From positions 124,001 to 188,000 of the forward strand of contig NZ_BMMQ01000003.1 of assembly GCF_014646015.1 (NCBI RefSeq): a stretch of DNA of 64,000 bases, given 5' to 3'. The stretch's first letter is position 1. Each line of letters begins with the position of its first letter. Positions 2,339 to 20,115 of this stretch are shown piece by piece. Made by a program: the position numbers and the translations under genes. The notes beneath the pieces are model-generated. The model searched no databases. It saw only the letters and a list, made by a program, of their open reading frames with translations, and had not been told where the DNA came from. The stretch is from Microbacterium nanhaiense (GTDB lineage Bacteria > Actinomycetota > Actinomycetes > Actinomycetales > Microbacteriaceae).

Positions 2339-2608
2339 GTGGCTGAGCCGTGGCTGTCCGCAGACGACATCGCCGCCCACCTCGGGGTCACCAAAGACAC
2401 TGTCTACACCTGGATCGCCGAGAAGGCCATGCCCGCCCACAAGGTCGGACGCCTCTGGAAGTTCCAAGCCAGCGAGATCGACGACTGGGTGCGTGCGGGT
2501 GCGGCGGCCAGCGACGACGAGACCGCTCAGCAGCCCACGCGAATGTCAGCGGTCGCTCCTACGATCGTGACAACGAGTACGGGAAGGGGAGCCGATGACG
2601 CTGAGTGA
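2339..2608 (+). CDS. excisionase-family helix-turn-helix protein
   Basis: An 89-residue protein that begins with a compact winged-helix/excisionase-type HTH. Helix 1 is LSADDIAAHLGV, helix 2 is KDTVYTWIAEK, and the wing ends in VGRLWKFQASEIDDWV. The GTG start at 2339 is supported by a strong GAGGGAGGA ribosome site. The gene overlaps the next methylase-like gene by 14 bases, so it belongs to the restriction-modification-like operon. In that position it is more likely an operon regulator (similar in role to a controller protein) than a phage excisionase. A recombination directionality factor for the element is the alternative. Confidence 0.75.
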   Translation: MAEPWLSADDIAAHLGVTKDTVYTWIAEKAMPAHKVGRLWKFQASEIDDWVRAGAAASDDETAQQPTRMSAVAPTIVTTSTGRGADDAE

Positions 2609-3239
2609 AGCCCAGCGGTTGGTGAAGTCCAAGCAGCGCGTTGCCGATCACGGCGAGGTGTTCACGCCGGGGTGGATGGTCGAGGACATGCTTGATCTCG
2701 TCAAGCACGAGTCCGAGCGGATCGACGCTCGCGTGCTTGAGCCCGCTTGTGGCTCGGGAAACTTCCTTGTCCCGGTCCTGGCCCGCAAGCTCGTCACCGT
2801 CCAGCTCCGTCACGGCAAGAGCGAGTTTGAGAAGCGCCACTACGCCCTGTTTGCGCTGATGTGCACGTACGGCATCGAACTCCTCGCAGACAACGCCGAA
2901 GAGTGCCGCGACAATCTAGCCGAGGTGTTCAACACGTTTCTGGGCATCAGCAGCGATGACCAGTGGGCGCAAGCGGCGCGCGCGGTCCTAGCCGTGAACA
3001 TCGTCCAGGGGGATGCCTTGACCATGACCTTGGTGAGTGGCCAGCCGATCACCTTCCCTGAGTGGGGCTACCTCGGCAAAGGGAAGTTCCAGAGGCGCGA
3101 CTTCCGCTACGACGATCTCACCCAGCGAGCCTCGTACGAGGGCACACTGTTCGGCGAACTGGACGACGACGACCTGTTCGTTCCCGCGCAGAACTACCCG
3201 ACCATGACCGTCAATCAGATCGCCGAGGCCGCCGCGTGA
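2595..3239 (+). CDS. N6-adenine methylase-like SAM-binding protein without catalytic motif
   Basis: A 214-residue protein that resembles the start of an N6-adenine DNA methyltransferase. It has GEVFTPGWMV at residues 20-29 and a clear SAM-binding motif I, EPACGSGNF, at 49-57. A motif II-like YGIELLADN lies at 92-100 and a motif III-like NIVQGDAL at 135-142. It ends with an acidic and aromatic stretch and contains no NPPY/NPPF catalytic tetrapeptide, so alone it should not methylate DNA. The ATG has a GGAAGGGGA ribosome site and overlaps the HTH gene. Its stop overlaps the GTG of the next gene, which does carry NPPY. A split or heterodimeric methylase is the natural inference. Confidence 0.8.
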   Translation: MTLSEAQRLVKSKQRVADHGEVFTPGWMVEDMLDLVKHESERIDARVLEPACGSGNFLVPVLARKLVTVQLRHGKSEFEKRHYALFALMCTYGIELLADNAEECRDNLAEVFNTFLGISSDDQWAQAARAVLAVNIVQGDALTMTLVSGQPITFPEWGYLGKGKFQRRDFRYDDLTQRASYEGTLFGELDDDDLFVPAQNYPTMTVNQIAEAAA

Positions 3240-4900
3240 CCCTTGCACCCTTTACCCTCAGAGGGCACAACCCGGATGTCTTGACCTGCATCGCGAATCT
3301 CTCCAACGATGAGGTCTTCACTCCGCCGGAGTTCGCAAGCCAGATGCTCGACACGCTTGCCGCCGCCTGGGCAGACGCCAACGACGGTGCGAACATCTGG
3401 GCCAATCCTGACATCACGTTCCTCGATCCGTTCACAAAGTCCGGTGTGTTCCTCCGCGAGATCGTCCGTCGACTCACCGACGGGTTGATCTTGGTGATCC
3501 CCGACTTGGCCGAACGCGTCGATCACATCCTCACCCGCCAGGTGTTCGGCATCGGGATCACTCAACTCACCGCACTGCTGGCACGCCGCAGCGTCTACTG
3601 CTCGAAACTAGCCAACGGCCCGCACTCGATCGCCAAGTCATTCACGACTGAGGACGGCAACATCTGGTTCGGGCGCACCGAGCACACATGGGGCGGCGGC
3701 AAACGCGAGTTTCGAGCCGATCCTCTGACGAGCGAAGAGGTCGCGTTCTACACCAGTCGCAAGTGCGTCTACTGCGGGGCAGCCGAGGACGACTACGCAC
3801 GTGGCGACGACCTTGAGACTCACGCCTACGCCTTCATCCATACTGACGACATCGAAGCTCGGATCGCCGAGCTGTTCGGAGACAACATGCAGTTCGACGT
3901 CATCATCGGCAACCCGCCCTACCAGCTCAGCGACGGCGGACACGGAACCAGTGCTGCGCCGATCTATCAACTGTTCGTGGAGCAAGCCAAGAAGCTTGAT
4001 CCCGCTTCCTCACGATGGTCATTCCCTCCAGATGGTTTGCCGGTGGCAAGGGATTGGAGGATTTCCGCGAGTCGATGCTCAAAGACGGACGACTTCGCTC
4101 GATAGACGACTTCCTCAGTGCGGCCGATGTCTTTCCGGGCGTTGGCCTCAAGGGCGGCGTGAACTACTTCCTCTGGGATCGCGACCATCCTGGAGAGTGC
4201 GTGGTCACGACCCACTTCAAAGGATGGGATGACTCGACCGACACCCGGCCGCTACTCGAAGAAGGCGCCGATGTCTTCATACGCTTCAATGAGGGTGTTT
4301 CCATCCTGAAGAAGATCATGAAGGTCGAGCTCGCAGGGCAGCCGAGCGTTTCCCTCCCGGCCGAGAAGAGCTTCAGCGAACTTGTAAGTTCGGCCCGTGC
4401 GTTCGGGTTGCGGACCTTCTTCAAAGCGAAGTCCGTCGCCGGCCCCGAGGATGTGAAGGTCTACCAGAACGGTGGCATCGGCTATATAGCGAGGAGCGAA
4501 GTGGCTTCTGGCAAAGCGTTGATCGACAAGTGGAAGATCTTCGTCAGTTACGCGGCTCCGGGTACCGGCAACAAGGACTCGTATCCCCACCGCGTCATCA
4601 GCACGCCATTCCTCGGCGAACCCGGGAGTATCTCCACGGAGACATACCTGGCCATCGGCCCCTTCAATTCGAAGGAGGAAGCAGAGAGTGCGCTCTCGTA
4701 CCTGTCCTGCCGGTTGACGCGCTTGTTGATTCAGCTCCGAAAGGCCTCCCAGCATGTTACGAGCAGGGTCTACGGCTTCGTGCCTGTTCAAGAATGGACC
4801 AAGCAGTGGACCGACTCTGACTTGTATGCGAAGTACCGTTTGACCGATGAGGAGATCGCGTTCGTCGAGAAAGTAGTCCGTCCGATGGAGTTGGGAATCG

Positions 4901-4908
<8 letters not shown>
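3236..4908 (+). pseudogene. Eco57I-type adenine methyltransferase with target-recognition region, frameshifted
   Basis: The GTG start at 3236 opens a frame with DEVFTPPEF (about residue 25), a degenerate motif I DPFTKSGVF at 64-72, a CVYCG knuckle near 177-181 and the catalytic NPPY at 226-229. After Pro256 (codon 4001-4003) the frame changes, and the original frame stops at 4105. The natural continuation, beginning RFLTMVIPSRWF and carrying the C-terminal target-recognition half, runs in the +1 frame to TAG at 4908. Adding one C to the CCC at 4001-4003 restores a single protein of about 557 residues. The break is therefore a one-base deletion, either real or a sequencing error. The C-terminal part could be translated separately from ATG 4015, but it would lack SAM-binding motifs. 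Confidence 0.85.
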
Positions 4909-7471
<2,563 letters not shown>

Positions 7472-7501
7472 CCATCTGCCAGCCCGACCGAGAGAATCCG
7501 C

Positions 7502-9280
7502 ATGTCGTTCCAGACCCCGCGCAGCATCGAGGAGATGCTGACCGCTATCCACAAGCGCGAGTACCTGATGCCGGCGATCCAGCGAGAGTTCGTGTGGGGT
7601 GCCGATCAGATCACCAAGCTCGTCGATAGCCTCATGCGTGGGTACCCCGTCGGGTCGTTCCTGCTCTGGGACGTCAAGCCTGAAACTGTGCAGTCGTACA
7701 CGTTCTACGAGTTCCTGACCAACTACCACGAGCGCGACAACCCCTACGCCGACAAGGCAACGGTTCCCTCCGGGAGTGGCACGACGGCGGTGCTCGATGG
7801 ACAGCAGCGGCTCACCTCGTTGAACATCGCGCTGTACGGCAGCTTCGCGGAGAAGAAGAAGTACGCGTGGTGGAACAGCGCGGACGCGTTCCCCGTCAAG
7901 CGCCTCTACCTCAACCTCGTCGACGAGCCCGACGACGAGGAGCTCGGCACGAAGTACGACCTGCGGTTCCTCACCGACCGGGAGGCCTCCCCGGCGGACG
8001 GCGAGGCCGACAAGTGGTTCCGGGTCGGCGCAGTCCTCGATCTCGCCAACGCTGGCCCCGCGATCATGCGCGAGCTGGAGCAACGCGGCATCGCTGGATC
8101 GGCTGACGCGTTCCAGCGGCTCTACGACCTGTACGAGGCGGTGCGGGTTCTCAAGCCGATGAACTACTTCCTGGTCACCGATCAGGACGCCGACAAGGTG
8201 CTCGAAATCTTCGTCCGCGTCAACAGCGGCGGCACCACGCTCTCGTACTCCGACCTGCTGCTGTCGATGGCGACGAACCAGTGGCAAGAGCTGGACGCGC
8301 GCGAGGAGGTCCGCTCGCTGGTCTCCGAGATCAACAGCAACGCCGGGCGACAGTTCTCGTTCTCCAAGGATGTGGTGCTGAAGACCGCGTTGACGATCGC
8401 GGACGTGGATGTGCGGTTCAAGGTCACCAACTTCACCCAGGGGAACATGGCCAAGGTGGAGGCCGCGTGGCCGCAGATCAAGGGAGCCTTGCTGCGTGCT
8501 GCGACTTTGCTTCAGCAGTTCGGGTACAACGAACGTAACCTCACCGCGAACAGCGTGATCGTCCCGGTCGCGCACTACCTGCACCTCCGGGGCGCAGGTG
8601 ACTCCTACCTCGACTCCACCGCGGACGCGGCCGACAGGCTCGCCCTTCAACGGTGGGTGACCCGCTCGCTGGTCAAGCGCGGCATCTGGGGGTCGGGACT
8701 CGACACGCTCCTCACCCGCATCCGCGATGTCCTCCGCACTAACTCGACGAACGGCTTCCCGGTCGCTGCGGTCGAGGAGGCAATGGCGGCCGTCGGCAAG
8801 AGCCTCACGTTCGACAACGCCGAGATCGACGAACTGCTCAACCTCAAGTACGCCGGCCAGCGGACGTTCTCCGTCCTCTCGGTTCTGTATCCGGGGCTGG
8901 ACCTGAGCAAGAAGTTCCACGAAGACCACATCTTCCCCAAGTCCCGGTTCACCAAGAAGAAGCTCCTCGACGCCGGAGTCCCGCTCGACAGCATCGACGA
9001 CTACCTGGCGGCCGTGAATCTCCTGCCGAACCTCCAGTTGCTCGCTGGCACCGCCAACATCGAGAAGCAGGACAGCCTGCCCGCGGAGTGGATTGAGACT
9101 GCCTTCCCGAGCGAGGACAAGCGAGCCACCTACCTCGCCGAGAACGACCTCGACGGCCTTCCTCTCGACCTGGCCGACTTCACGTCGTTCTTCGAGCAGC
9201 GCAAGCAGCGAATCCGGACCCGCCTACTCGCCGCTCTGGGAACAGCACCGGGCGCACCGGAGGACGCGGCTCTGCAGTAA
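7502..9280 (+). CDS. DUF262 protein with C-terminal HNH nuclease motif (GmrSD/SspE-like)
   Basis: A 592-residue protein. The N-terminal half is a DUF262 domain with PAIQREFVW (24-32), the nucleotide-binding signature DGQQR (99-103) and FVRVNSGGTTLS (237-248). The C-terminal part holds HEDHIFPKS (473-481) followed by VNLLPNLQLL and N, the DUF1524/HNH pattern of GmrD-like nucleases. DUF262 plus HNH architectures occur in GmrSD, BrxU and SspE, which restrict modified or foreign DNA using NTP. The gene begins 30 bases after the GIY-YIG helicase and shares its direction, so it is either the last subunit of that system or a stacked type IV restriction enzyme. It converges on the cytosine methylase fragment. 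Confidence 0.85.
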   Translation: MSFQTPRSIEEMLTAIHKREYLMPAIQREFVWGADQITKLVDSLMRGYPVGSFLLWDVKPETVQSYTFYEFLTNYHERDNPYADKATVPSGSGTTAVLDGQQRLTSLNIALYGSFAEKKKYAWWNSADAFPVKRLYLNLVDEPDDEELGTKYDLRFLTDREASPADGEADKWFRVGAVLDLANAGPAIMRELEQRGIAGSADAFQRLYDLYEAVRVLKPMNYFLVTDQDADKVLEIFVRVNSGGTTLSYSDLLLSMATNQWQELDAREEVRSLVSEINSNAGRQFSFSKDVVLKTALTIADVDVRFKVTNFTQGNMAKVEAAWPQIKGALLRAATLLQQFGYNERNLTANSVIVPVAHYLHLRGAGDSYLDSTADAADRLALQRWVTRSLVKRGIWGSGLDTLLTRIRDVLRTNSTNGFPVAAVEEAMAAVGKSLTFDNAEIDELLNLKYAGQRTFSVLSVLYPGLDLSKKFHEDHIFPKSRFTKKKLLDAGVPLDSIDDYLAAVNLLPNLQLLAGTANIEKQDSLPAEWIETAFPSEDKRATYLAENDLDGLPLDLADFTSFFEQRKQRIRTRLLAALGTAPGAPEDAALQ

Positions 9281-9287
9281 CCCACGT

Positions 9288-10235
9288 TCACGCGGCGAGC
9301 AGCGACAGTGCGGACACGGCCCGGAGAGGTAGCACTCCGTTGCCCAGCGCGGTGATCTGCTGGTTCTGCGTCAGGTCATCGCTGTCCGTAACCCATCCGT
9401 TCGGTAAGCCCATGAGCCATTCGACGTATGCTGGTGCTGGGCGGGGGCCGTCGGCGTCGTTCAGGAGGGCTGGCGCTGGCGCGGGGCGTCCGGTGATGTG
9501 TTCCCAGCGGGTGATGGCGTCGGCGTAGCGTCCCCAGCGTTGAAGAGTCCGTCTATCAGGAACCACAGGGTCTCCGATTCGGCTCTCCTGGTCGGTGAGC
9601 CAGCCGGTCCGTGGAGCGCGAAGTCGATGATCTGGTGCGACAGTGCGATCGTCCCGCGCCTCGCTCGCACCTGGTCGAGAGTCTCCCCGCCGCGCGATGA
9701 GTCGGTCGCCAGCGGGGTGCGGAACAGTGCGCCGGGCGAGGGCGAAGATGCGGAAACGTTGGTGAGGAGCGCCGACAAGGGAAGCCGGTAGGCCGATCCA
9801 TCGTGCATCCAGCCGCAGGTCGGCCAGATCGCCGAGAACGGCGCCGAGAGCCCGTAGAGGTCGAGCTGCGTTGTCTCCCAGATGCCACGGGTCGGATTCC
9901 AGGCCGCAAAAGGTTGCGCTGCCGGGGGTTGCATCGCCTGGGTTGCGTCGTTCATGGTCGTCTCCTTCTGCGGGTGGCCGTGTCGCGGGTGAGGACAGCA
10001 GCCCGCGGACGTTCTCGATGACGACCCACTCGGGCTGGAGCGTGTCGATGGCTGCGGCCATGTGCGCCCAGAGCCCCGAGCGCGTACCTGGCGCGAGGCC
10101 GGCGCGCTTGCCGACGGTGGACACGTCTTGGCATGGGAAGCCGCCGCTGGCGTCGAGGTCGTGCATGAAGTCTGCTCCGGCGACGGACGTCCCCGGCATC
10201 CGTGCCTCATCGAGAACTGATGCAGAGCTGGTCAC
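9288..10235 (-). CDS. C5-cytosine DNA methyltransferase, N-terminally truncated
   Basis: A 315-residue protein with most conserved C5-methyltransferase blocks. Motif IV GGFPCQDVS has catalytic Cys35, motif VI VIENVRGLL is at 72-80, motif VIII is GAPHQRFRIF, a target-recognition stretch follows, and motif X GNGVLPLRA is near the C-terminus. Motif I (the F-x-G-x-G SAM site) and motifs II-III should lie upstream of motif IV but only about 30 unrelated residues precede it. The DNA beyond, up to the relaxase start, gives no such motif in any minus-strand frame I read. The enzyme is probably inactive, a remnant cut by an element rearrangement. Intact relatives are typically about 400 residues. Confidence 0.8.
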   Translation of the reverse strand: MTSSASVLDEARMPGTSVAGADFMHDLDASGGFPCQDVSTVGKRAGLAPGTRSGLWAHMAAAIDTLQPEWVVIENVRGLLSSPATRPPAEGDDHERRNPGDATPGSATFCGLESDPWHLGDNAARPLRALGAVLGDLADLRLDARWIGLPASLVGAPHQRFRIFALARRTVPHPAGDRLIARRGDSRPGASEARDDRTVAPDHRLRAPRTGWLTDQESRIGDPVVPDRRTLQRWGRYADAITRWEHITGRPAPAPALLNDADGPRPAPAYVEWLMGLPNGWVTDSDDLTQNQQITALGNGVLPLRAVSALSLLAA

Positions 10236-10437
10236 CTGTCAGGTGCACGACTCCGACACGCGCCCGCTGCTCAACCGAGCCCCCGCTTGCCGCCGCCCGA
10301 TGCCTCCATCTCCGGCCTCGGCTCCGACCGCCATCCGAGGTCACACGCCTCTTGCAGGTCGAGGTTGAGTCGGGCATTGCCGCTTCAGAAGTCACCGGGT
10401 GCGGGTGCTCACCTGCCCGGCAGGAGCGGAGGTGGGC

Positions 10438-13400
10438 ATGACGGTTTCGATGCGCGTGATGTCGGCAGGTGACGGCTACAAGTACCTGCTCAAGACCGTC
10501 GTGGCAGCCGACGGAGACCGACCGCTCTCGACGCCGCTTACCCGCTACTACATGGAGGACGGCACCCCGCCTGGTCGCTGGCTCGGCGCGGGCGTAGCGG
10601 CCCTCGGCAAGGGCGAGATTCAGGTGGGCGACCGAGTATCGGAACACCAACTCCAGCTCCTGATGGGCACAGGCTGTGATCCGATCACCGGCGACAAGCT
10701 CGGCCTGGGCTTCGCGGCATACAAGAGCCAGGAGCAGCGAATCGAAGCGCGGATCGCTGACCTCGAACCGACGATGACCCCCGGCGCCAAGGGAGAGGCC
10801 GTCGCGCAGATCGTTGCCGAGGAGACAGCCCGAAGTACACGGCGTGCTGTGGCGGGCTTCGACTTCACCTTCTCGATCCCGAAGTCCGCGAGCGTGTTGT
10901 GGGCAGTCGCCGACGCCGGGGTCCAGGCACTCATCGCCGAGGCGCATCATCGCGCGGTTGCGGAGGTGGTTGCGTTCATGGAACGCGAGGTTGCAGCCAC
11001 GCGCACGGGCGCAACCGCCGGAGACGGCGCGGTTGCGCAGGTCGATGTCACCGGGCTCATCGCGACCGCCTTCGATCACTTCGACTCCCGCGCCGGCGAC
11101 CCCCACCTCCACACGCACGTCGTCATCAGCAACAAGGCCAAGACCGTCCTCGATGGGAAGTGGCGCTCGCTCGACGGCAGACCCATGCACACCGCCGTCG
11201 TCGCGCTCTCCGAACTCCACGAAGCCGTGTTCGCCGACCACATGACGCGCACCTTCGGCGTCTCATGGGAGGCCCGAGAGATGGGCCGCGACCACAACCC
11301 TGCATGGGCGATCACTGGAGTGCCCGATGAACTGATCGCCGAGTTCTCTACCCGCGCGCGTCACATCAACGCCGAGACCGATCGCCTCATCGCCAAGTAC
11401 GTCGCAGCGCACGGACGACGCCCGACACCAGCGGCGATCATGAAATTGCGAGCTCAAGCCACACTCGCGACTCGGCCCGAGAAGCAGGTTCGGTCCTTGG
11501 CTGACCTCACCGTCGAATGGCGGGAGCGCGCCACGAAGTCGTTGGGGCGGGATGCGACGACGTGGGCGCGCGAGGTGACCGACAACGACAAGCCGCTCCT
11601 GCTGCGTGCCGACGACGTACCGCTCGTTGTCATTGGCGAGATTGGGCGTTCGGTCGTCGAGGTGGTCGGTGAGAAGCGCTCGACCTGGCGACGCTGGAAT
11701 CTCATGGCCGAGGCATCCCGGCAGACGATGGGCTGGCGCTTCGCCACCATGCACGACCGGGAAGCCATCGTCGCCATGGTTGCCGATGCCGCCGAGTTCG
11801 CTTCGCTTCGCTTGACCCCGCCCGAACTCGCCGCCTCGCCCGTCGTGTTCCGTCGGACCGACGGCACCTCGGTGTTCCGACCGAAGAGCTCGACCGTGTT
11901 CACCTCCGAGTCCCAGCTCGCGGCCGAGGACAGACTTCTCGAACGAGCAGCTAACCTCGGCGGGTCGACGGTGACGCTTGCCACGGTCGAGAAGATCACG
12001 CGCAGTCCCGATGCGGACGGTCGGATGCTCGGCGACGACCAAGCCGACGCCCTGACCCGGATCGCGGTGTCGGGTCGGATGCTCGACGTGCTGGTCGGTC
12101 CTGCCGGTGCGGGCAAGACCACCGCAATGAACGCGCTCCGCCGCGCCTGGGAAGCCCAGCACGGCTCCGGTTCCGTCGTCGGGCTCGCGCCGTCAGCGGT
12201 CGCCGCACAGGTCCTCGCCGACGACCTCGGAATCGCGACGGAGAACACTGCGAAGTGGTGGCAGAACCACCTGATCCACGGCACCGCGTTCGAGGCAGGC
12301 CAGCTCGTCATCATCGACGAAGCCTCCCTCGCCGGCACCCTGTCACTGGACCGCATCACCCACCTCGCCCAAGACGCTGGCGCGAAGGTGCTGCTTGTCG
12401 GCGACTACGCCCAACTGCAATCCGTAGATGCCGGCGGCGCGTTCGCGATGATCGCTAGAGACCGGGCCGACACTCCCGAACTGGTCGACGTTCACCGCTT
12501 CACCCATGCCTGGGAGAAGACCGCCTCACTCGAGCTGCGTCACGGGCGCACAGCGGCTATCGACACTTACCTCGCCCACCAGCGCATCGCCGATGGCGAC
12601 GCCGAGGCCATGACCGACGCGGCTTACAACGCATGGCGCGCCGACCGCGACGCGGGACTCGTTTCTGTGCTGATCGCTGAAACCCACGACGACGTGACCG
12701 CGCTGAACGGTCGCGCCCGCGCCGACCTGATCCTCAACAAGACTCTGAATCCCGACCGCGAAGTCGAGCTGCGCGACGGCACCGCCGCTGGCGTCGGCGA
12801 CACCATCATCACGCGACTCAACAAGCGCGAACTGCGCACCCTGGTCGGGCGGGACTGGGTACGCAACGGCGACATCTGGACCGTCACCGCCGTCGGCGAC
12901 GACGGGACCATCACCATCGCACGCGACTACGGAACCGGCACCACCGTCGGCGACGACGGAACCATCAAGGCTCGCAGGCGTGGGCGCAGGTTCGGCGGCC
13001 GCATCGTCCTCCCGGCCTCGTATGTGGCCGAGCATGTCGATCTCGGTTACGCAGTCACCGCCTACCGCGCCCAAGGCATCACGACCGACAGTGCGCACGT
13101 GTTGGTCGAACCGACCTCGACGAGGGAGACCTTCTACGTCGCTATGACCCGAGGGCGGCACGCGAACCACGCCTACGTGACTCTCGACCGCGCCGACTAC
13201 CATGCCCAGCTGCACCCTGGCGACGACCCGCATGCCACCGCGCGAAGCGTGCTGTACGGCGTTCTCCAGCACAGCGGGGCCGAACTCTCGGCGCACGAGA
13301 CCATCGTCGCCGAGCAGGAACAGTGGGGCTCGATCGCCCAGCTCGCCGCCGAGTACGAGACCATCGCCGCCGCAGCCCAGCATGACCGCTGGGCTGCCCT

Positions 13401-14049
13401 CATCCGCTGCTCCGGGCTCTCCGACGAACAGGCCGAGAGCGCGATCGAGTCCGAGGCGTTCGGCCCCCTTGCCGCTGAACTTCGCCGCGCCGAGGCCAAC
13501 CATCACAACCTTGATGCGCTCTTGCCGCGCCTCGTGGCCGCGCGAGGATTCGATGACGCCGACGACATCGCCGCCGTCCTGCACTACCGGGTCGAGCGGG
13601 CGACCGGCCGCCCCGCAGGCTCGGGCCGGACCCGCAAGCCAACGCGACTTATCGCCGGCCTCATCCCACAGGCGCACGGCGTCATCGATGTTGAGATGCG
13701 AGCGGCTCTCGACGAGCGAGAGGAGCTCATCGCGGCACGCGCCGACGCCGTACTCGACGGCGCGCTGGCCGAGAGCGTGCCGTGGACGAAGGCACTCGGC
13801 ACGCGGCCCACCGAACCGCGACGGGCTGCGGCCTGGCGCAAGTCCGCGCGCGTGATCGCCGCCTACCGCGATCGTTACCGCGTCACCGACGACACGCCCC
13901 TCGGCGCGCCACCCGAGTCGGCGGTCCAGAAGATCGACGCTGCGCGGGCGCGGGCAGCCCTCGACCGAGTGCGAGTGGCCGCTGAAACCGTGGATGATGC
14001 TCACGCAGCTCGAAGCCCGTCGAGAGATGGGCCGTCGCGGGCAATGTAG
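10438..14049 (+). CDS. MobF-family conjugative relaxase with helicase domains (TrwC/TraI type)
   Basis: About 1,203 residues from ATG 10438, chosen because it follows a GGAGCGGAGG ribosome site and gives the usual MTVSMRVMSAGDGYKYL beginning; a GTG 13 codons earlier is possible. The N-terminal TrwC relaxase domain carries the metal-binding HFDSRAGDPHLHTH (His triad at about 223-227). The C-terminal half is an SF1 helicase with Walker A GPAGAGKT (554-561), DEAS box near 627, and YRAQG and VAMTRGR near the end. It would nick the element's origin of transfer, bind the DNA through a tyrosine and unwind it for conjugation. It is the clearest backbone gene of the mobile element. No oriT was identified. 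Confidence 0.93.
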   Translation: MTVSMRVMSAGDGYKYLLKTVVAADGDRPLSTPLTRYYMEDGTPPGRWLGAGVAALGKGEIQVGDRVSEHQLQLLMGTGCDPITGDKLGLGFAAYKSQEQRIEARIADLEPTMTPGAKGEAVAQIVAEETARSTRRAVAGFDFTFSIPKSASVLWAVADAGVQALIAEAHHRAVAEVVAFMEREVAATRTGATAGDGAVAQVDVTGLIATAFDHFDSRAGDPHLHTHVVISNKAKTVLDGKWRSLDGRPMHTAVVALSELHEAVFADHMTRTFGVSWEAREMGRDHNPAWAITGVPDELIAEFSTRARHINAETDRLIAKYVAAHGRRPTPAAIMKLRAQATLATRPEKQVRSLADLTVEWRERATKSLGRDATTWAREVTDNDKPLLLRADDVPLVVIGEIGRSVVEVVGEKRSTWRRWNLMAEASRQTMGWRFATMHDREAIVAMVADAAEFASLRLTPPELAASPVVFRRTDGTSVFRPKSSTVFTSESQLAAEDRLLERAANLGGSTVTLATVEKITRSPDADGRMLGDDQADALTRIAVSGRMLDVLVGPAGAGKTTAMNALRRAWEAQHGSGSVVGLAPSAVAAQVLADDLGIATENTAKWWQNHLIHGTAFEAGQLVIIDEASLAGTLSLDRITHLAQDAGAKVLLVGDYAQLQSVDAGGAFAMIARDRADTPELVDVHRFTHAWEKTASLELRHGRTAAIDTYLAHQRIADGDAEAMTDAAYNAWRADRDAGLVSVLIAETHDDVTALNGRARADLILNKTLNPDREVELRDGTAAGVGDTIITRLNKRELRTLVGRDWVRNGDIWTVTAVGDDGTITIARDYGTGTTVGDDGTIKARRRGRRFGGRIVLPASYVAEHVDLGYAVTAYRAQGITTDSAHVLVEPTSTRETFYVAMTRGRHANHAYVTLDRADYHAQLHPGDDPHATARSVLYGVLQHSGAELSAHETIVAEQEQWGSIAQLAAEYETIAAAAQHDRWAALIRCSGLSDEQAESAIESEAFGPLAAELRRAEANHHNLDALLPRLVAARGFDDADDIAAVLHYRVERATGRPAGSGRTRKPTRLIAGLIPQAHGVIDVEMRAALDEREELIAARADAVLDGALAESVPWTKALGTRPTEPRRAAAWRKSARVIAAYRDRYRVTDDTPLGAPPESAVQKIDAARARAALDRVRVAAETVDDAHAARSPSRDGPSRAM

Positions 14050-14168: not shown

Positions 14169-15125
14169 ATGGCGCGCGCTGATCTACTCCTAGACCTCGT
14201 CGAGGCCGAACGCCGCGGCGATCGGGAACGCTTCAAGGTGCTGGTTGAGTCCGTCATCGCCGAAGAACGCGCCAACCAGCATCATCTTCTCGCCGATCGG
14301 CTCTCGCAACTCATCACGACGACGGGACAGGGACCCGTCCGCGACGACCGAGCAGCAGCGATCCGCGATCTCGTGCATGAGGTCGTACCGAACCGTCGGC
14401 TGCATGAACTCGAACTTGCGCCCGTCCCGCAACGAGTCGTGACCGAACTGATCGAGGAGCAGAAGCGCGCCGAGCTTCTGCGTAGTTACGGTATTGAGCC
14501 GCGCAACCGACTTCTGCTGTCTGGCCCGCCTGGAAACGGCAAGACGAGCGTGGCGGAAGCGATCGCGGCAGAACTGATGCTTCCCTTCTACGTGATCCGC
14601 TACGAGGGAGTCATGTCGAGTTTCCTCGGCGAAACGGCCGCACGGCTGGACAACGCGTTTGAGTTCGCGCGGACCCGCCGTTGCGTGTTGTTCTTCGACG
14701 AACTGGACACCATCGCCAAGGAACGAGCAGACGAGCACGAGACCGGCGAGATCAAGCGGGTGGTTTCGACACTGCTGCTCCAAATCGACAGACTGCCACC
14801 CCACGTGATCTTCGTTGGCGCAACCAACCACGGCGAGCTGCTGGATCGGGCGGCATGGCGACGGTTCCAGATTCGGACGGAGTTGGGACCTCCTAGCCGC
14901 GCACAGGCGACGAGATTCCTCGAACGTCTTGCTGAACGCCTCGGAGGCGACCTCGGTTTCGCTCCTCGTACCCTCGCCGACAAGTTGGCCGGGGCGAGCT
15001 TCGCCGAGTTGGAAGAGTTCGCACTTGATGTGCGCCGCCGCGCGGTGCTGGAACTCCCGGATGACAACATCCGCCGGATAGTGCTAGAACGGCTTGAACA
15101 CCGCCGAGGTCAGGCGGCAGGGTGA
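14169..15125 (+). CDS. ietA: AAA ATPase of an ietAS-type defence pair (IetA)
   Basis: A 318-residue AAA ATPase. A helical N-terminal region of about 110 residues precedes Walker A GPPGNGKT (119-126), Walker B VLFFDELD (173-180), sensor 1 GATN (217-220) and an Arg finger candidate in AAWRRFQ (231-232). The ATG is preceded by a strong GAAGGAGGCG site. The stop overlaps the GTG of a subtilase gene by four bases. An AAA ATPase coupled to an S8 peptidase is the ietAS arrangement, reported as an antiviral pair by Gao and colleagues (2020). The ATPase presumably gates or feeds the protease. A shared promoter probably lies in the 119 bases after the relaxase gene. Confidence 0.85.
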   Translation: MARADLLLDLVEAERRGDRERFKVLVESVIAEERANQHHLLADRLSQLITTTGQGPVRDDRAAAIRDLVHEVVPNRRLHELELAPVPQRVVTELIEEQKRAELLRSYGIEPRNRLLLSGPPGNGKTSVAEAIAAELMLPFYVIRYEGVMSSFLGETAARLDNAFEFARTRRCVLFFDELDTIAKERADEHETGEIKRVVSTLLLQIDRLPPHVIFVGATNHGELLDRAAWRRFQIRTELGPPSRAQATRFLERLAERLGGDLGFAPRTLADKLAGASFAELEEFALDVRRRAVLELPDDNIRRIVLERLEHRRGQAAG

Positions 15126-17728
15126 CGGTTGAGCGCAAACCGCTCCTTGCGTTCGGGCCGGCGGAGGTTGTGGCGCGGCCAACCCAGACGCCGCGTGATC
15201 TTCCACGTCTGGCAAAGCCGGGCGCTGGGCGACAAGGTGAACGACTGACTCCTCAGTTCAAGGACTTGGCCGCAGCTTTCGAAGCCGAACGTGCCCGTCT
15301 GAGCGCCGACACCCCAGAGGAGATTGACCCCGCACTCGTGGTCGTATTTGATCTGGCGGGAAGCGTCAAGGACTTCCGCAACGCAATCAACCGGATCGAT
15401 GGCCTGGAGTTTCTGTCGGAGCTTCTCGGGGATCAATCTGACCCCGACGACGATTTCCACATGACGGAGCGTGAAGCTGGACGGACAGACAAGCGCGTCA
15501 CGCACTCGCTGTACTTGGTCATGTCCAACACCAAGGCGATCGACGAACTACTCCGGCTCTTCGCTCAATGGCAGGCCGACCCGTCCGCGTCGTTCGAGCA
15601 CGGGCTAGGCAAGTTCAAGACGGCCTTCCAGCAACTGACAGCGATACGTCGGTGGGGCGCTGAGGACCGCATCCGTGAGACTGGTCTACGAGAGCGCTGG
15701 GAAGAGACTCTCAGCATGGTCGGTCAGTCAGTCAGCACCGTCCTCGTCGAAGTCGAGCTCTGGCACAGGCGTGATGCCGCCCAGCGTGCGGCTGCCGAGG
15801 CGCACGTCGAGGAAGTCATCACTTCCAGCGCCGGTCGAGTCTTGGATCGCTCGCAGATCGGAGAGATCGAGTACCACGCGCTCCTGGCTGAACTCCCGAT
15901 CCAGCAGGTCCAGTCCGTGTTGACCAACGGAGCTTCGGCCATTCGGCTTCTCACGACTGATGACGTCATGTTCGTCAGCCCCTTCACCCCGATGAGCGTT
16001 GCACCAGGGACTCTTGAGCCAGTTACTCAAACCAACCTTGCTCGCAGCGACAGAGTCGAAGGCAAGCCTCGGATCGCGCTGCTCGACGGGCTGCCGTTCA
16101 CCAACCACGACACGCTCCAAGGCCGGCTCTCGATCGATGACCCTGATGGGCTTGGTGAGAACTACCCCGTCGCGGCTCGCCACCACGGAACCGCCATGGC
16201 GTCACTCATCATTCACGGCGACCTCACTGATGGCGGTCCCGCGCTTGATCGTCCTCTCTACGTGCGCCCGATCCTGCAGCCCCATGAGTTCATGCCTGGG
16301 CACGAGCAGGTAGTCCCGAATCGTCTGCTCCCCGACGTCCTTCATCGTGCGATCAGACGGATTGTGAAGGGCGAGGGGAACCAGCCTGCCGCAGCGCCGA
16401 GCGTCCGGGTTGTGAACCTCTCCATAGGCGCACAGACACGAGCACTCACGCGTCGAATGAGCCCCATTGGGCGCCTGCTGGACTGGCTCGCCCACTCGTA
16501 CAATCTGCTGTTCGTCGTCAGTGCGGGTAACCACACCGACGAGTTCACGATCCCCGCCGATGCCGCGCACGACACTGACGCCGCTCGCCTGGCTGCAATG
16601 CGGGTCGGCTTCGAGACGGCGCTGCTACGCGGCATCCTTCCGCCTGGCGATGCACTGAACGCCCTCACCGTCGGTGCCACGCACTCAGACGGCCTCGGCG
16701 AGATCGCAGTTCCAGATACGGTGTGGGATATCACCAACCCGGACGCTCCCGCACACTACGGGTCGGTTGGGCCCGGTGTCGATCGGTCGGTCAAGCCGGA
16801 CCTTCATCACTCCGGAGGCCGCGCCCTCTACACGCGCCCCATCGTGCTGCCCGGTCAGACTGACGTTGCCGTCGGCCTGGCTCGCACCGCCGCGACGGGA
16901 CCCGGCTTGCAGGTGGCCGCTCCGGGACGCGGGGGTGCTACCAACAGCACGGTGTTCACGAACGGCACCAGTAACGCGACGGCGCTCGTCACCCGTGAAG
17001 CCAGCAGGCTGTTTGACCTCCTTGAGTCTGATAACCGCGATCCCGAAGACGCACCGCTTCCTGATCCGCAATACCACCCGCTGCTCGTGCGCGCTCTCCT
17101 TGCCCATGCAAGCAGTTGGGGCGCTTGGGAGAACAGCCTGCGCAACGATCTTGGTCTCAATGGCCAGGATGCTCGGCGGCAGTTGACGGCTCTGCTCGGC
17201 TACGGTCGCCTCGACCTCAGCAGACTCGGCGAAGCCGCGTCCAACCGAGCCGTCCTCGTCGCGGGCGGTCAAATCGCACGGAACGAGCGCCATACTTACG
17301 GATTCCCACTGCCTCCCTCGCTTCGAGCGAAAGCGGAATGGCACCGCTTCACCATCACGCTGGCATTCATGGCTCCGACGGTCGGCCAGCTCACTCGGTA
17401 CCGCAGCGCGAAGGTCTACTTCAGTACACCCGACACGAGCCTCGCAGGCGGCGAGCGTTCCGATGCAGAGCACAACGCGGTTCGGAGGGGAAGCCTTCAG
17501 CACGAGATTGTGCAGGGCTCTCGCGCCATGTCTTTCGTTGATGGAGACAGCTTCCCGATTCATGTCGAGTGCATGGACGACGCCCAGCGACTCCGTGCAG
17601 GCAACACGATCCGATATGCGCTGGTTGTCTCCGCCGAGACCGCGGAGCAGACCTCCAACACCATCCACGAAGAGGTCCGTGACAGGCTACGCGCACGCGC
17701 GCGCGTCCAGGGCCGCATTCGACCGTAG
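15122..17728 (+). CDS. ietS: S8 subtilase-family serine protease of an ietAS-type defence pair (IetS)
   Basis: An 868-residue protein. About 315 N-terminal residues contain no recognisable motif. The subtilase domain then shows the full catalytic set: Asp322 in ALLDG, His355 in HHGTAMAS, the oxyanion Asn in VVSAGNHTDEF, and Ser617 in GTSNATAL. About 250 further residues follow, including beta-rich segments. There is no signal peptide, so it acts in the cytoplasm. The GTG start overlaps the ATPase stop. In ietAS systems the protease is the likely effector and the ATPase its regulator; the trigger and substrate are unknown. All catalytic residues are intact, so this pair looks functional. Confidence 0.87.
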   Translation: MTVERKPLLAFGPAEVVARPTQTPRDLPRLAKPGAGRQGERLTPQFKDLAAAFEAERARLSADTPEEIDPALVVVFDLAGSVKDFRNAINRIDGLEFLSELLGDQSDPDDDFHMTEREAGRTDKRVTHSLYLVMSNTKAIDELLRLFAQWQADPSASFEHGLGKFKTAFQQLTAIRRWGAEDRIRETGLRERWEETLSMVGQSVSTVLVEVELWHRRDAAQRAAAEAHVEEVITSSAGRVLDRSQIGEIEYHALLAELPIQQVQSVLTNGASAIRLLTTDDVMFVSPFTPMSVAPGTLEPVTQTNLARSDRVEGKPRIALLDGLPFTNHDTLQGRLSIDDPDGLGENYPVAARHHGTAMASLIIHGDLTDGGPALDRPLYVRPILQPHEFMPGHEQVVPNRLLPDVLHRAIRRIVKGEGNQPAAAPSVRVVNLSIGAQTRALTRRMSPIGRLLDWLAHSYNLLFVVSAGNHTDEFTIPADAAHDTDAARLAAMRVGFETALLRGILPPGDALNALTVGATHSDGLGEIAVPDTVWDITNPDAPAHYGSVGPGVDRSVKPDLHHSGGRALYTRPIVLPGQTDVAVGLARTAATGPGLQVAAPGRGGATNSTVFTNGTSNATALVTREASRLFDLLESDNRDPEDAPLPDPQYHPLLVRALLAHASSWGAWENSLRNDLGLNGQDARRQLTALLGYGRLDLSRLGEAASNRAVLVAGGQIARNERHTYGFPLPPSLRAKAEWHRFTITLAFMAPTVGQLTRYRSAKVYFSTPDTSLAGGERSDAEHNAVRRGSLQHEIVQGSRAMSFVDGDSFPIHVECMDDAQRLRAGNTIRYALVVSAETAEQTSNTIHEEVRDRLRARARVQGRIRP

Positions 17729-17787: not shown

Positions 17788-19050
17788 TCAAGCAGTCTCC
17801 TGCGCATCGCGGTCAGGCGGCTGGATCATCAGCACGTTCGAGATGCCGCCTTGGTTCACGCAGTCCTGGGCGAGGTCATGGACGTGCCAGTAGAAGTCCA
17901 AGTCTGCCTCGGACGCGTTAACCGTGAACTCGACTGGCGTGTACAGGTGAAGTGGGACTGAGGCTCCGTCGTAGTGATAGCCGAAGTTGTCGATCGTTGA
18001 GATGGTCAGCGGATGATCGCCAGTGAAATCGATCCCGACGCGGATGTCGTACTCACCGCCGCCTGTCGCTTCCGCTGTCTTGCGCACCAGCGCCATGAGG
18101 TCCGCCATCGCGCATTCGATGGCTGCGGACTGGACCTGCCAGCCATCGAAGTAGCCGTCGCTGCTCATGCGGTGGCCCCCAACGGCCGCTGCGATCGTGA
18201 CTGATCCATCGTGGTGAATGCTCGCCCAGGCCTCCTTCCACGCCGAGCCTTCACCTGCCGCACTGTTCACGGCCACCCATCGACGAAGGCCTGGTCGCGG
18301 GTTGTGACGGTCGACGCTCTCCAGTGGGTGAATGCCACCGCGGCCCGCGTAAAAGAGCGCAAGGCTCTCAGCCTTTGCGAGGATCTCACGGGCTTCATCG
18401 CGCGTGAGCCGACTTCCGACGCGTGGGAGGCGTGGGTGGGCAACTGCTACCAGCCAGGCGCGCGTCTCTGAATCTCGCCCGGCTGCTGCTTCCGCATACA
18501 ACGTGTCCAGAACTTCGGTGGCGTGGCGGCGCTCGTCGAAGCGCGCACGGTACATCGCCTCGATCTGACGCTCCTTCATCCACACCGTGTCCGCATCGTT
18601 CCGAACGGGTGCACCGAAGTAGTCGCCCCTATAGATCAGATGCGGACCATCGACGCTGGCTGGCACCTCAACGATGACGGCACGCTCGCCTTCCGCCGAG
18701 CCCAGCCGAAACACGTTCAGGCCGAACACAGGCGGCGTGATCGCGGTGATCGCCGCGCTGCGAAGGGAGCGCTCGTACCCCTCGTCAAAGTCGCCAACGT
18801 CGGTACGCCCGGTCGCCGCCTTCTGTGACTCGTGCACGCCGAAGACGATGACGCCACCCCCACTGTTCGCCATGGCCGCAACGTCTTTCGGGAAGTCGGT
18901 CTGCGGCAATCCCTTCTGAGGTGGAAGCTCCGACTTCCAGTCCAGGTCGTCGGACTCCGTCGCACCAGCCGCGACAGCCGAATCGAGCAGTTCGTCCGTC
19001 AACGGACCGGGGCCGCGACCGAGAACGCGGTGGAGGGCAGTGAAGCTCAT
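17788..19050 (-). CDS. Schlafen-type AlbA_2 domain protein (putative ATP-binding/nucleic-acid-binding)
   Basis: A 420-residue protein with an N-terminal AlbA_2 (Schlafen) domain: ESDDLDWKSELP near residues 32-43 and the signature ANSGGGVIVFGV at 61-72. The remaining 300 residues contain WxxxW-rich alpha/beta segments that I do not recognise. AlbA_2 proteins are frequent in mobile elements and defence islands, where some act in RNA or DNA processing. The gene lies 66 bases downstream of dprA on the same strand, so the two may be co-transcribed, and it converges on the ietS gene. Function beyond the domain call is open. Confidence 0.75.
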   Translation of the reverse strand: MSFTALHRVLGRGPGPLTDELLDSAVAAGATESDDLDWKSELPPQKGLPQTDFPKDVAAMANSGGGVIVFGVHESQKAATGRTDVGDFDEGYERSLRSAAITAITPPVFGLNVFRLGSAEGERAVIVEVPASVDGPHLIYRGDYFGAPVRNDADTVWMKERQIEAMYRARFDERRHATEVLDTLYAEAAAGRDSETRAWLVAVAHPRLPRVGSRLTRDEAREILAKAESLALFYAGRGGIHPLESVDRHNPRPGLRRWVAVNSAAGEGSAWKEAWASIHHDGSVTIAAAVGGHRMSSDGYFDGWQVQSAAIECAMADLMALVRKTAEATGGGEYDIRVGIDFTGDHPLTISTIDNFGYHYDGASVPLHLYTPVEFTVNASEADLDFYWHVHDLAQDCVNQGGISNVLMIQPPDRDAQETA

Positions 19051-19116
19051 ATGACAAGCGTAGGGATGGCCACCGACAACGCGGGGAGGGAGCAGCCCAG
19101 GTTTAGAGCTTTGCTG

Positions 19117-20115
19117 TCACATCTCAACGACGCTTCGCGCATCACGCGAAGCGCTGGGAGCAGGTCGGCTTCGCACCGCCGCAACGGAACCCCTGCTGCC
19201 TACCGGCTGCCTGATCATCTGTTCGAGGTCGGTCGAGCCGGCCACCAACCGGGCCTCCCCACTGTGCAGAAGCCGGTGCGGCCCGACACTCGTCGCGCTG
19301 GTGACGGGGCCGGGGACGGCAACGAGGGAGCGACCGAGTTGGTGCGCTTCCTGCGCGACCTTCATCGATCCCGATCGCGCGCCGGCCTCAACCACGACCG
19401 TTGCTGTGGACAGTGCGGCCATCAACCGTGCACGGGCGATGAACCGATGGCGGGTCGGCGTTGCGCCGGGTGCGACTTCGCTGACCAGCAGACCGTCATC
19501 AGCGACACGACCGAGCAGCTCGCTGTGGCCCGCCGGATACGCGCGATCAACTCCGTTCGCAAGGACTGCGATGGTATCGCCACCGGCCGCGAGCGCCGCG
19601 CGATGGGCAGCACCTTCGATGCCGTAGGCACCTCCGGCCACGATGATCCGCTCAGCGCAGGCGAGGTCGGAGGCAAGCTGCCCGGCCACCTGCTCGCCGT
19701 AGGATGTCGAGGCCCTCGCGCCGGTGATCGTGACGAGATCGTTGAGCGGTCGCGCGAGAAACGAGGTCATGCCACGAGTCCAGAGGACGTACGGCCGCCG
19801 GTCGCCAAGATCGTCGAGCGCGGAAGGCCAGTCTTTCTCTCCGGGAATCAGCGTGCCGGTACCGGCGCGCTCGGCTTCGACGAGGTTCTCTTCAAGCGTC
19901 CGAGTGTCTGGGCGCTGGAACTGGGCGCGCCACACTTGAGCGTCAACGGTGCTGAGCCCCGGCACCGCGTCATCACCCTCGGCGATCCGAAACAGCTCCT
20001 GTGCACCGAGCTCGCCCAGGAGGCGACCGGTGACGGCATCGTCCGGTTCGACGAGCATCGACAGCACCATCCGTGCTGTGCGCTCGTCCTGGACTATCTG
20101 GCTCAAGATCGTCAT
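19117..20115 (-). CDS. dprA: DprA/Smf-family DNA-processing protein, element-borne paralogue
   Basis: A 332-residue DprA family protein. The Rossmann-like core shows TITGARASTSYG (129-140), the loop GGAYGIEGAAH (161-171) and VLANGVDRAYP. DprA binds single-stranded DNA and loads RecA. Chromosomal copies normally sit in a comM-dprA locus, so this copy, flanked by an AlbA_2 gene and element genes, is an accessory one of the kind carried by conjugative elements. There it may protect or process incoming single strands. A nucleoside-sensing role in defence (the SLOG-related fold) is an alternative. The start ATG at 20115 is divergent from the small membrane protein gene. Confidence 0.85.
   Translation of the reverse strand: MTILSQIVQDERTARMVLSMLVEPDDAVTGRLLGELGAQELFRIAEGDDAVPGLSTVDAQVWRAQFQRPDTRTLEENLVEAERAGTGTLIPGEKDWPSALDDLGDRRPYVLWTRGMTSFLARPLNDLVTITGARASTSYGEQVAGQLASDLACAERIIVAGGAYGIEGAAHRAALAAGGDTIAVLANGVDRAYPAGHSELLGRVADDGLLVSEVAPGATPTRHRFIARARLMAALSTATVVVEAGARSGSMKVAQEAHQLGRSLVAVPGPVTSATSVGPHRLLHSGEARLVAGSTDLEQMIRQPVGSRGSVAAVRSRPAPSASRDARSVVEM

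What the first reader, a model, noticed from the sequence alone, without database searches (positions are those of the whole stretch)
2339..9280. Five-gene, overlapping HTH / split methylase / GIY-YIG-helicase / DUF262-HNH operon
Seen: an HTH gene overlaps a SAM-binding methylase-like gene by 14 bases. The next junctions overlap by 4 and 8 bases, and the DUF262/HNH gene begins 30 bases later. Known: GIY-YIG, SF2 helicase, Eco57I-type methylase and DUF262/HNH modules each occur in restriction systems. Inferred: together they make a restriction-modification-like system with two possible effectors (GIY-YIG and HNH). I do not recognise this exact composition as a named system.
Basis: partly seen in the sequence, partly recalled or inferred. 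Interest (0 to 1): 0.78.

Follow-up and report, generated by a model that had tools for sequence, protein, structure and literature searches.

The report
DrdVI-type split restriction system plus BrxU
This is a member of a little-studied family of bacterial restriction-modification systems, in which the methylating enzyme appears to be divided between two proteins, carried beside a known anti-phage enzyme (BrxU) on a mobile element; in this genome its main methylase gene is broken.

Summary
The coordinates and overlaps are right, but the second methylase gene (M2) carries a one-base frameshift near 4001. The core, M1-M2-helicase, is not unnamed: it is the DrdVI type of "split methylase" RM. On plasmid pDrdVI (methylates GCAGCC) the same three genes stand in the same order, helicase 70% identical. 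The core is compact in 59 of 69 testable genome loci.

The HTH gene is found in 7 of 67 loci. A full-length DUF262 gene follows the helicase in 2 of 65, intact in one. The DUF262 protein is a full-length BrxU homologue.

The interesting feature lies inside the core. M1 keeps its SAM-binding motifs but has no NPPY (0 of 71). M2 keeps NPPY (69 of 69), but its three SAM motifs are altered in all 69. In a distant branch the catalytic half is a separate gene starting shortly before NPPY. I infer a methyltransferase assembled in trans, aiming a GIY-YIG/SF2 translocase that works like Type ISP. The M2 C-terminus swaps between elements, so specificity probably sits there. The composite active site is untested.

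The parts
2339..2608 (+). HTH: excisionase-type helix-turn-helix protein, MAD1-like; probable regulator; found only in loci whose helicase is 84-98% identical to the window's
   Evidence: Pfam HTH_17 52.5 bits; NCBIfam MADS1 74.3 bits, below its cut-off of 80; 7 of 67 loci
2595..3239 (+). M1: half methyltransferase, SAM-binding half (motifs X, I, II, III) without a catalytic NPPY motif
   Evidence: motif counts; AlphaFold2 best model pLDDT 81.2, the other four 60.7-70.4; residues 4-157 match CamA 6-160, Z 9.8, rmsd 3.3 over 138 residues
3236..4105 (+). M2, 5' part: altered SAM half and the catalytic NPPY motif; ends in an out-of-frame tail because of the frameshift near 4001
   Evidence: Eco57I PF07669 80.8 bits; frameshift
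4015..4908 (+). M2, 3' part in another frame: end of the methyltransferase domain and target-recognition region
   Evidence: PF07669 27.1 bits, PADLOC PDLC03375 109.6 bits; 99% identical to L003
4901..7471 (+). HEL: N-terminal GIY-YIG (T5orf172-type) nuclease domain, SF2 (ResIII) helicase/translocase
   Evidence: ResIII in 35 of 35 and T5orf172 in 22 of 35 members scanned; Y20, K36, G38, R48, D78, E100, K171, T172 and E271-Y272-H273 invariant in 81 of 81, D270 in 80 of 81
7502..9280 (+). BrxU homologue: DUF262 (GmrS) plus DUF1524-type HNH (GmrD), Type IV restriction enzyme, open reading frame intact
   Evidence: phmmer to 7p9k 549.7 bits over residues 3-582, with QRE, DGQQR and DHI-P motifs aligned; PADLOC HEC-05 740.8 bits

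Best explanation
A DrdVI-type three-subunit restriction-modification system (M1-M2-HEL) with two accessory genes (HTH, BrxU) on an actinobacterial mobile element. Proposed working: M1 and M2 together form one N6-adenine methyltransferase that marks one strand of a short asymmetric site. M1 brings the SAM-binding half, M2 brings the catalytic NPPY half and the target-recognition domain. HEL, in which I see no recognition domain, is aimed by M2. At an unmethylated site its SF2 motor moves along DNA and its GIY-YIG domain cuts, probably when two complexes meet, as in Type ISP enzymes. BrxU acts separately on phage DNA with modified cytosines, and the HTH protein probably regulates the operon. In this genome M2 is frameshifted before the recognition region, so the RM part is probably silent (or mis-assembled) while BrxU is open. 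SHOWN by computation: gene content, family membership, conserved motifs, exchange of the M2 C-terminus, frameshift. SHOWN by others: methylation by M1-M2 of DrdVI; BrxU activity. INFERRED: composite active site, translocation, cutting, regulation.
For: pDrdVI carries the same three genes in order, helicase 70% identical; M1-2.DrdVI is listed as an m6A methylase of GCAGCC, cloned and expressed in E. coli (PMC6430315, whole text); MaeIV is placed in the same split-methylase family (PMC10113651, passages). The core is compact in 59 of 69 loci with room for it. Motif counts. The M1 profile matches a Type I methylase subunit, 3ufb, over the SAM motif, E 1.3e-4. M1 and the M2 N-half are homologous, hhalign probability 95.8%, E 6.7e-9. 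Fission and fusion forms in distant relatives. M2 C-terminus: L006 and L025 are 98-100% identical in both flanks and 48-66% across the recognition region; three recognition classes (single linkage at 52% identity) hold 64 of 70 copies, and the window falls in the DrdVI class, 64% identical to DrdVI. BrxU.
Against: No cleavage by a GIY-YIG/helicase member of this family was seen in print; the DrdVI paper lists M1-2 only and calls it Type IIG. The SAM motif in M2 still has D-P and the second glycine, and M.TaqI is recalled to work without the first glycine, so M2 might bind SAM alone. M1 of two distant loci (L102, L105) has lost the second glycine. T5orf172 scores just below its cut-off in the window protein and is not reported for the DrdVI, Enterococcus or L108 helicases. 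The HEL profile finds no PDB chain at E 0.01, so no sequence link to Type ISP was shown.
Confidence: 0.72

Rival explanations
1. One five-gene system: HTH, methylases, GIY-YIG helicase and DUF262/HNH act together with two coupled effectors.
For: Same strand, overlapping or 30 bases apart; one relative (L010) keeps M1, M2, HEL and an open BrxU gene in the same order, without the HTH gene.
Against: HTH in 7 of 67 loci. The BrxU gene is intact in one relative, has two stops in L002, and is split by an insert in 8 loci; in 6 of those 8 HEL is open, in L011 HEL is interrupted and in L012 it is cut by the contig end. BrxU cleaves modified DNA on its own in published work (PMC8565348, passages).
Confidence: 0.1
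2. M2 is a complete methyltransferase that binds SAM itself; M1 is an accessory or allosteric subunit (for example a SAM sensor), not a supplier of the SAM site.
For: The M2 model aligns along most of its length with CamA (Z 13.2) and M.TaqI (Z 13.1); D-P and the second glycine of motif I are kept.
Against: All three SAM-contact positions of M2 are altered in 69 of 69, while M1 keeps them in 70-71 of 71 (the motif III position in M2 is assigned by eye).
Confidence: 0.3
3. Type ISP or Type IIG family member rather than its own kind.
For: Order nuclease-helicase-methylase-recognition domain in the Enterococcus fusion (L085); PADLOC assigns helicase and M2 to one REase_MTase_IIG model; DrdVI is listed as IIG.
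Against: Separate chains with a separate M1 in 10 of 12 distant loci (the other two are cut by a record or contig end), a T5orf172-type rather than Mrr-type nuclease domain, no PDB sequence match of HEL at E 0.01.
Confidence: 0.15
4. The whole locus is decaying cargo with no function in this genome.
For: M2 frameshift here and, separately, in L008, and M2 in two frames in L078; BrxU broken in several relatives.
Against: Codon differences after the break are mostly synonymous (21 to 3); HEL, M1 and BrxU are open here; 66 of 80 loci have M2 in one frame.
Confidence: 0.3

Closest known systems
DrdVI (Deinococcus wulumuqiensis 479, pDrdVI), split methylase RM
   Same: Same three genes in the same order; helicase 70% identical, recognition region 64% identical to the window's; M1-M2 motifs of the same kind.
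   Different: No HTH or DUF262 gene adjacent in the annotation; M2 in one frame there, frameshifted here.
MaeIV (Methanococcus aeolicus), GCACY
   Same: Stated in print to be a split methylase/RM pair similar to DrdVI (PMC10113651, passages).
   Different: Archaeal; its sequence was not fetched here.
Type ISP enzymes LlaGI / LlaBIII
   Same: SF2 motor plus N6-adenine methylase plus recognition domain (PMC7049714, passages); the M2 model matches LlaGI 5ffj (Z 11.2).
   Different: ISP is one polypeptide with (recalled) its own SAM site and an Mrr-family nuclease; here two or three chains, a separate SAM half and a T5orf172-type domain.
BrxU (plasmid pEFER; PDB 7p9k)
   Same: Full-length homologue, 549.7 bits. 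7p9k occurs once in the BrxU paper (count, passage not shown).
   Different: Sits beside a DrdVI-type RM rather than BREX.
M.AquI and M.EcoHK31I, naturally split C5-methyltransferases
   Same: One methyltransferase made of two polypeptides (PMC3404938, passages).
   Different: Cytosine-C5 enzymes whose large subunit keeps motifs I-VIII; here the SAM half is duplicated and the two copies have diverged reciprocally.
MADS (MAD1 HTH + MAD2 methylase)
   Same: A MAD1-like HTH gene directly before a methylase gene.
   Different: MAD1 score below the NCBIfam cut-off; M1 matches MAD2 over about 60 residues only (25.7 bits against a cut-off of 720).

Membership tests
DrdVI-type split methylase RM | Two adjacent methylase genes (M1 without NPPY, M2 with NPPY) followed by a helicase gene | tested here: met
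   in the window M2 carries a frameshift
DrdVI-type split methylase RM | m6A methylation of one strand of an asymmetric site, requiring M1 and M2 | not testable with these tools
   Print lists M1-2.DrdVI, cloned and expressed, with motif GCAGCC; whether each gene alone suffices was not seen; not tested for this copy
Type ISP | Single polypeptide with nuclease, SF2 motor, methylase and recognition domain | tested here: not met
   Separate genes here; a helicase-M2 fusion exists in Enterococcus, still with a separate M1
Type ISP | Mrr-type nuclease at the N-terminus | tested here: not met
   Pfam reports only ResIII, T5orf172 (22 of 35) and MUG113 (6 of 35) in the members scanned
Type ISP | ATP-driven translocation and cutting at head-to-head sites | not testable with these tools
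   Needs biochemistry; helicase motif residues are conserved
Type IIG | Endonuclease and methylase in a single polypeptide (PMC12602166, passages) | tested here: not met
   Separate chains and an SF2 motor, although DrdVI is listed as IIG
BrxU / GmrSD Type IV | DUF262 with QR and DGQQR, and a C-terminal HNH with DHIxP | tested here: met
BrxU / GmrSD Type IV | Cleavage of DNA with modified cytosine | not testable with these tools
   Published for BrxU itself (PMC8565348, passages)
GIY-YIG / T5orf172 nuclease domain (HEL N-terminus) | T5orf172 profile match above cut-off and catalytic Tyr/Arg/acid conserved | tested here: inconclusive
   19.8 bits against 20 in the window, 22 of 35 members matched, 32 bits in L101, none reported for L083, L085, L108; Y20, R48, D78 and E100 invariant, their catalytic role assigned by eye; no structure made
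MADS | MAD1 and MAD2 above NCBIfam cut-offs | tested here: not met
   74.3 of 80 and 25.7 of 720 bits

The most novel reading that the evidence does not exclude
An N6-adenine DNA methyltransferase whose SAM site and catalytic site lie on different polypeptides: a stand-alone SAM half (M1) works in trans with a subunit (M2) whose own SAM half has become a pseudo-domain, and this two-part reader/writer also aims an ATP-driven GIY-YIG translocase. In a distant branch the pseudo-SAM half has moved onto the motor and the catalytic half is a separate gene, so the methylase may form only when motor, SAM subunit and recognition subunit are together, tying restriction to modification.
Probability: 0.42. 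Interest if true: 0.72.

Novelty: new variant of a known kind. Interest (0 to 1): 0.5.

Why it matters
The finding as given (a new five-gene system) dissolves into known parts: a DrdVI-type RM, BrxU, and a regulator on one group of related elements. The reciprocal motif loss makes this directly testable with the published DrdVI clones. The exchangeable M2 C-terminus, with DrdVI as an anchor of known specificity, offers a way to predict or change recognition sites.

Tried and rejected
Five-gene unit as one system: rejected on neighbour counts. MADS membership: rejected on scores. A first HTH search by regular expression found nothing even in loci with a known HTH gene; the pattern was wrong, and (phmmer then profile) replaced it. 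Besides the 7 hits, one search gave one weak minus-strand hit in L020 (E 0.016), not counted; L004, which has no M1 and so is outside the 67, has a 49% HTH match on the minus strand. PDB sequence search gave no match for M2 or HEL at E 0.01, and at E 10 only chance-level matches for M2, none covering the SAM motif; so the M.TaqI and general SAM-motif consensus that I use as comparison are recalled, as is the position of NPPY in CamA. Phase variation of M2: no run of four or more identical bases around the window break; not supported, although the L008 frameshift lies in a run of four. Whether intact BrxU and intact M2 exclude each other: among the relatives only L010 has both intact, but the copies are not independent; left open. 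A paper search for MADS listed only papers on unrelated genes; a search for HEC-05 found one relevant paper of six. Rows dropped before counts: M1 hits spanning 150 residues or less, M2 not open in one frame, HEL with stops or spanning 780 residues or less. The 71 M1 rows are the window, 67 of the 80 genome loci, L082, L083 and L085; the 69 M2 rows are 66 genome loci, L082, L083 and L084; the 67 loci are 64 genome loci and L082, L083, L085. The short loci (L086-L100) were not used for neighbour or motif counts.
Full report
Observation. What the finding leaves out is that M2 is not one reading frame in the window: 3236-4105 and 4015-4908 are two frames of one gene. Against L003, the closest intact relative, the only length difference is one base near 4001. 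The codons after the break differ from L003 by 21 synonymous and 3 non-synonymous changes, so the break is recent or an assembly error. L008 has a separate one-base frameshift in M2 although it differs from L006 by only 3 substitutions in 2.6 kb, and L078 also has M2 in two frames.

Identity of the core. Of these, 69 have enough sequence before the helicase: M1 was found in 67, M2 in 68, and the three genes are compact in 59. Among plasmids, the match on pDrdVI of Deinococcus wulumuqiensis 479 (70% identity) shows M1, M2 and helicase in the same order. The genome paper lists M1-2.DrdVI as an m6A methylase of GCAGCC, type IIG, with its genes cloned and expressed (PMC6430315, whole text). [quoted passage not shown] The core is therefore a known kind. 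The phrase "split methylase" with "restriction" was found in that one paper only; the library is open-access PMC, and REBASE was not available.

The accessory genes. HTH lies before M1 in 7 of 67 loci with 700 bases upstream (64 genome loci and 3 plasmid loci): L002, L006, L007, L008, L017, L025 and L034, with helicases 84-98% identical to the window's; L005 keeps only the end of it. Of 65 genome loci with 2 kb after the helicase, L010 has an intact DUF262 gene, L002 has it full length with two stops, and L006-L009, L011, L012, L025 and L034 keep only its ends. In L006 these lie either side of about 5.7 kb with an oxidoreductase, a signal-peptidase-II-like protein and a P-type ATPase (Pfam scan of L006 only). 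Within the 4 kb that one search examined, the oxidoreductase recurs in all 8 of these loci and the ATPase in 7. L018 has a distant match on the other strand. Outside this lineage the largest neighbour family covers 7 loci, on mixed strands and at varying distances, not identified. The DUF262 protein is BrxU-like over its full length: phmmer to PDB 7p9k gives 549.7 bits over residues 3-582, with the QRE, DGQQR and DHI-P motifs aligned. BrxU cleaves DNA with modified cytosines and was found beside BREX as a complementary layer (PMC8565348, passages). PADLOC's HEC-05 family, 740.8 bits, is equated with BrxU in PMC11411939 (passages).

Anatomy of the methylase. In 71 M1 sequences both glycines of motif I are invariant, the acid of motif II is present in 71 and the Asp of motif III in 70, but no [NDS]PP[YFWH] motif occurs in any. 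In 69 M2 sequences NPPY is invariant, the first glycine of motif I is Lys in all, the motif II acid is Gly, Ala or Ser in all, and the motif III Asp is Asn or His in all. The M2 positions of motifs I and II are fixed by profile alignment with M1 (probability 95.8%, E 6.7e-9, residues 18-96 on 23-108); that of motif III is assigned by eye. The M1 model (best mean pLDDT 81.2, the other four 60.7-70.4) has three strands that I take as the first three of the Rossmann fold, then a hairpin. It matches CamA residues 6-160 (Z 9.8, rmsd 3.3, 138 residues; a modest Z by the tool's own note). Foldseek alone gave no match at E 0.001 for M1, CamA being the best at 0.059. The M2 model (mean 74.5, taken from L003) is under pLDDT 50 in 61-70, 96-133 and 138-146, where the altered SAM motifs lie, and otherwise follows CamA (Z 13.2) and M.TaqI (Z 13.1). 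Low confidence there may also come from the shallow alignment (36 rows).

Distant relatives. I examined 12 further loci (L083-L085, L101-L109). M1 was found in 10 of them and none of the 10 has NPPY; L103 ends at the record start and L107 at the contig end. None of the 11 M2-type SAM halves seen has the two-glycine motif: the first glycine is Lys in 9 and Thr in 2. In L102, L103, L108 and L109 the altered SAM half sits at the C-terminus of a longer helicase protein and the catalytic half is a separate gene with NPPY at residue 16-37 of its open frame; L105 has the same kind of catalytic-half gene, with its helicase in two open frames. In L085 helicase and M2 are one chain, with M1 still separate. 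Against the simple picture, M1 of L102 and L105 has lost the second glycine of motif I. In L108 and L109, M1 is the only one of the three proteins with a canonical SAM motif, so an active methylase there would have to be assembled from several chains. This is the main argument for the composite site, and it remains an inference; no methylation data exist for these loci in what I saw.

Specificity. The M2 C-terminal region falls into three classes of 23, 21 and 20 among 70 copies (single linkage at 52% identity), while the M2 N-part is more uniform. L006 and L025 come from different genomes and are 98-100% identical for kilobases on both sides, yet 48-66% identical across the recognition region and 88-97% in the helicase; M1 is 100% identical at protein level. 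So M1 does not follow the recognition class. The window belongs with L003 (99%) and DrdVI (64%), which suggests a GCAGCC-like site; that is a prediction, and 64% leaves room for a different site.

Mechanism and naming. HEL has the conserved motor residues (K171/T172, DEYH) and an N-terminal domain of T5orf172 type with invariant Tyr, Arg and acidic residues; Pfam does not report T5orf172 in the DrdVI, Enterococcus or L108 helicases. In the Enterococcus fusion the order is nuclease region, motor, methylase, recognition region, as described for Type ISP (PMC7049714, passages). I take Type ISP as the best model of action but not as the family, because the single chain and the Mrr nuclease are not met. 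Because no recognition domain was seen in HEL, losing the end of M2 should silence modification and restriction together, which would explain how a cell tolerates the window's frameshift (inference).

Verdict. The five-gene unit is not supported; the core and BrxU are known. The reciprocal split of the methylase is the part worth a specialist's attention.

Noticed in passing
window 14169-17728: IetA (AAA ATPase) and IetS (subtilase) pair, a known defence system: PADLOC 474.9 and 1052.5 bits over nearly the whole profiles.
   Followed up: partly
window 10399-14049: TrwC/MobF-type relaxase with helicase domain, suggesting a conjugative or mobilisable element; parts of it match L002, L008, L009 and L012 at the same place.
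   Followed up: partly
window 9288-10235, minus strand: C5-cytosine methylase piece matching only part of the profile, apparently lacking its N-terminal part; it lies next to BrxU, whose published relative attacks modified cytosine.
   Followed up: no
window 17788-20115, minus strand: A Schlafen/AlbA_2 protein and a ShosA/PsyrA-like protein, DprA-like in my reading, extend the defence island.
   Followed up: no
L006:11684-17292 and same place in L007-L009, L012, L025, L034: About 5.7 kb with oxidoreductase, signal-peptidase-II-like and P-type ATPase genes replaces the middle of the BrxU gene (Pfam scan of L006 only).
   Followed up: partly
L006 vs L025: Elements from different genomes with 98-100% identical flanks but an exchanged block covering M2 and the helicase: recent allelic replacement.
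   Followed up: yes
L082:2990-14559: On Corynebacterium plasmid pCRULAC2 the M1-M2 pair is separated from the helicase by transposition genes and aminoglycoside-resistance genes; described only.
   Followed up: no
L104:79-7913: A phage (NatCom_35866) carries M1, M2 and the helicase, with an excisionase-type regulator gene two genes upstream of M1.
   Followed up: no
L008:8025: A second, independent frameshift in M2 in an otherwise almost identical element.
   Followed up: partly
L002, L031, L035, L042, L046, L054, L063 (within 4 kb of the core): A shared neighbour protein family of about 440-560 residues, on mixed strands, not identified.
   Followed up: no
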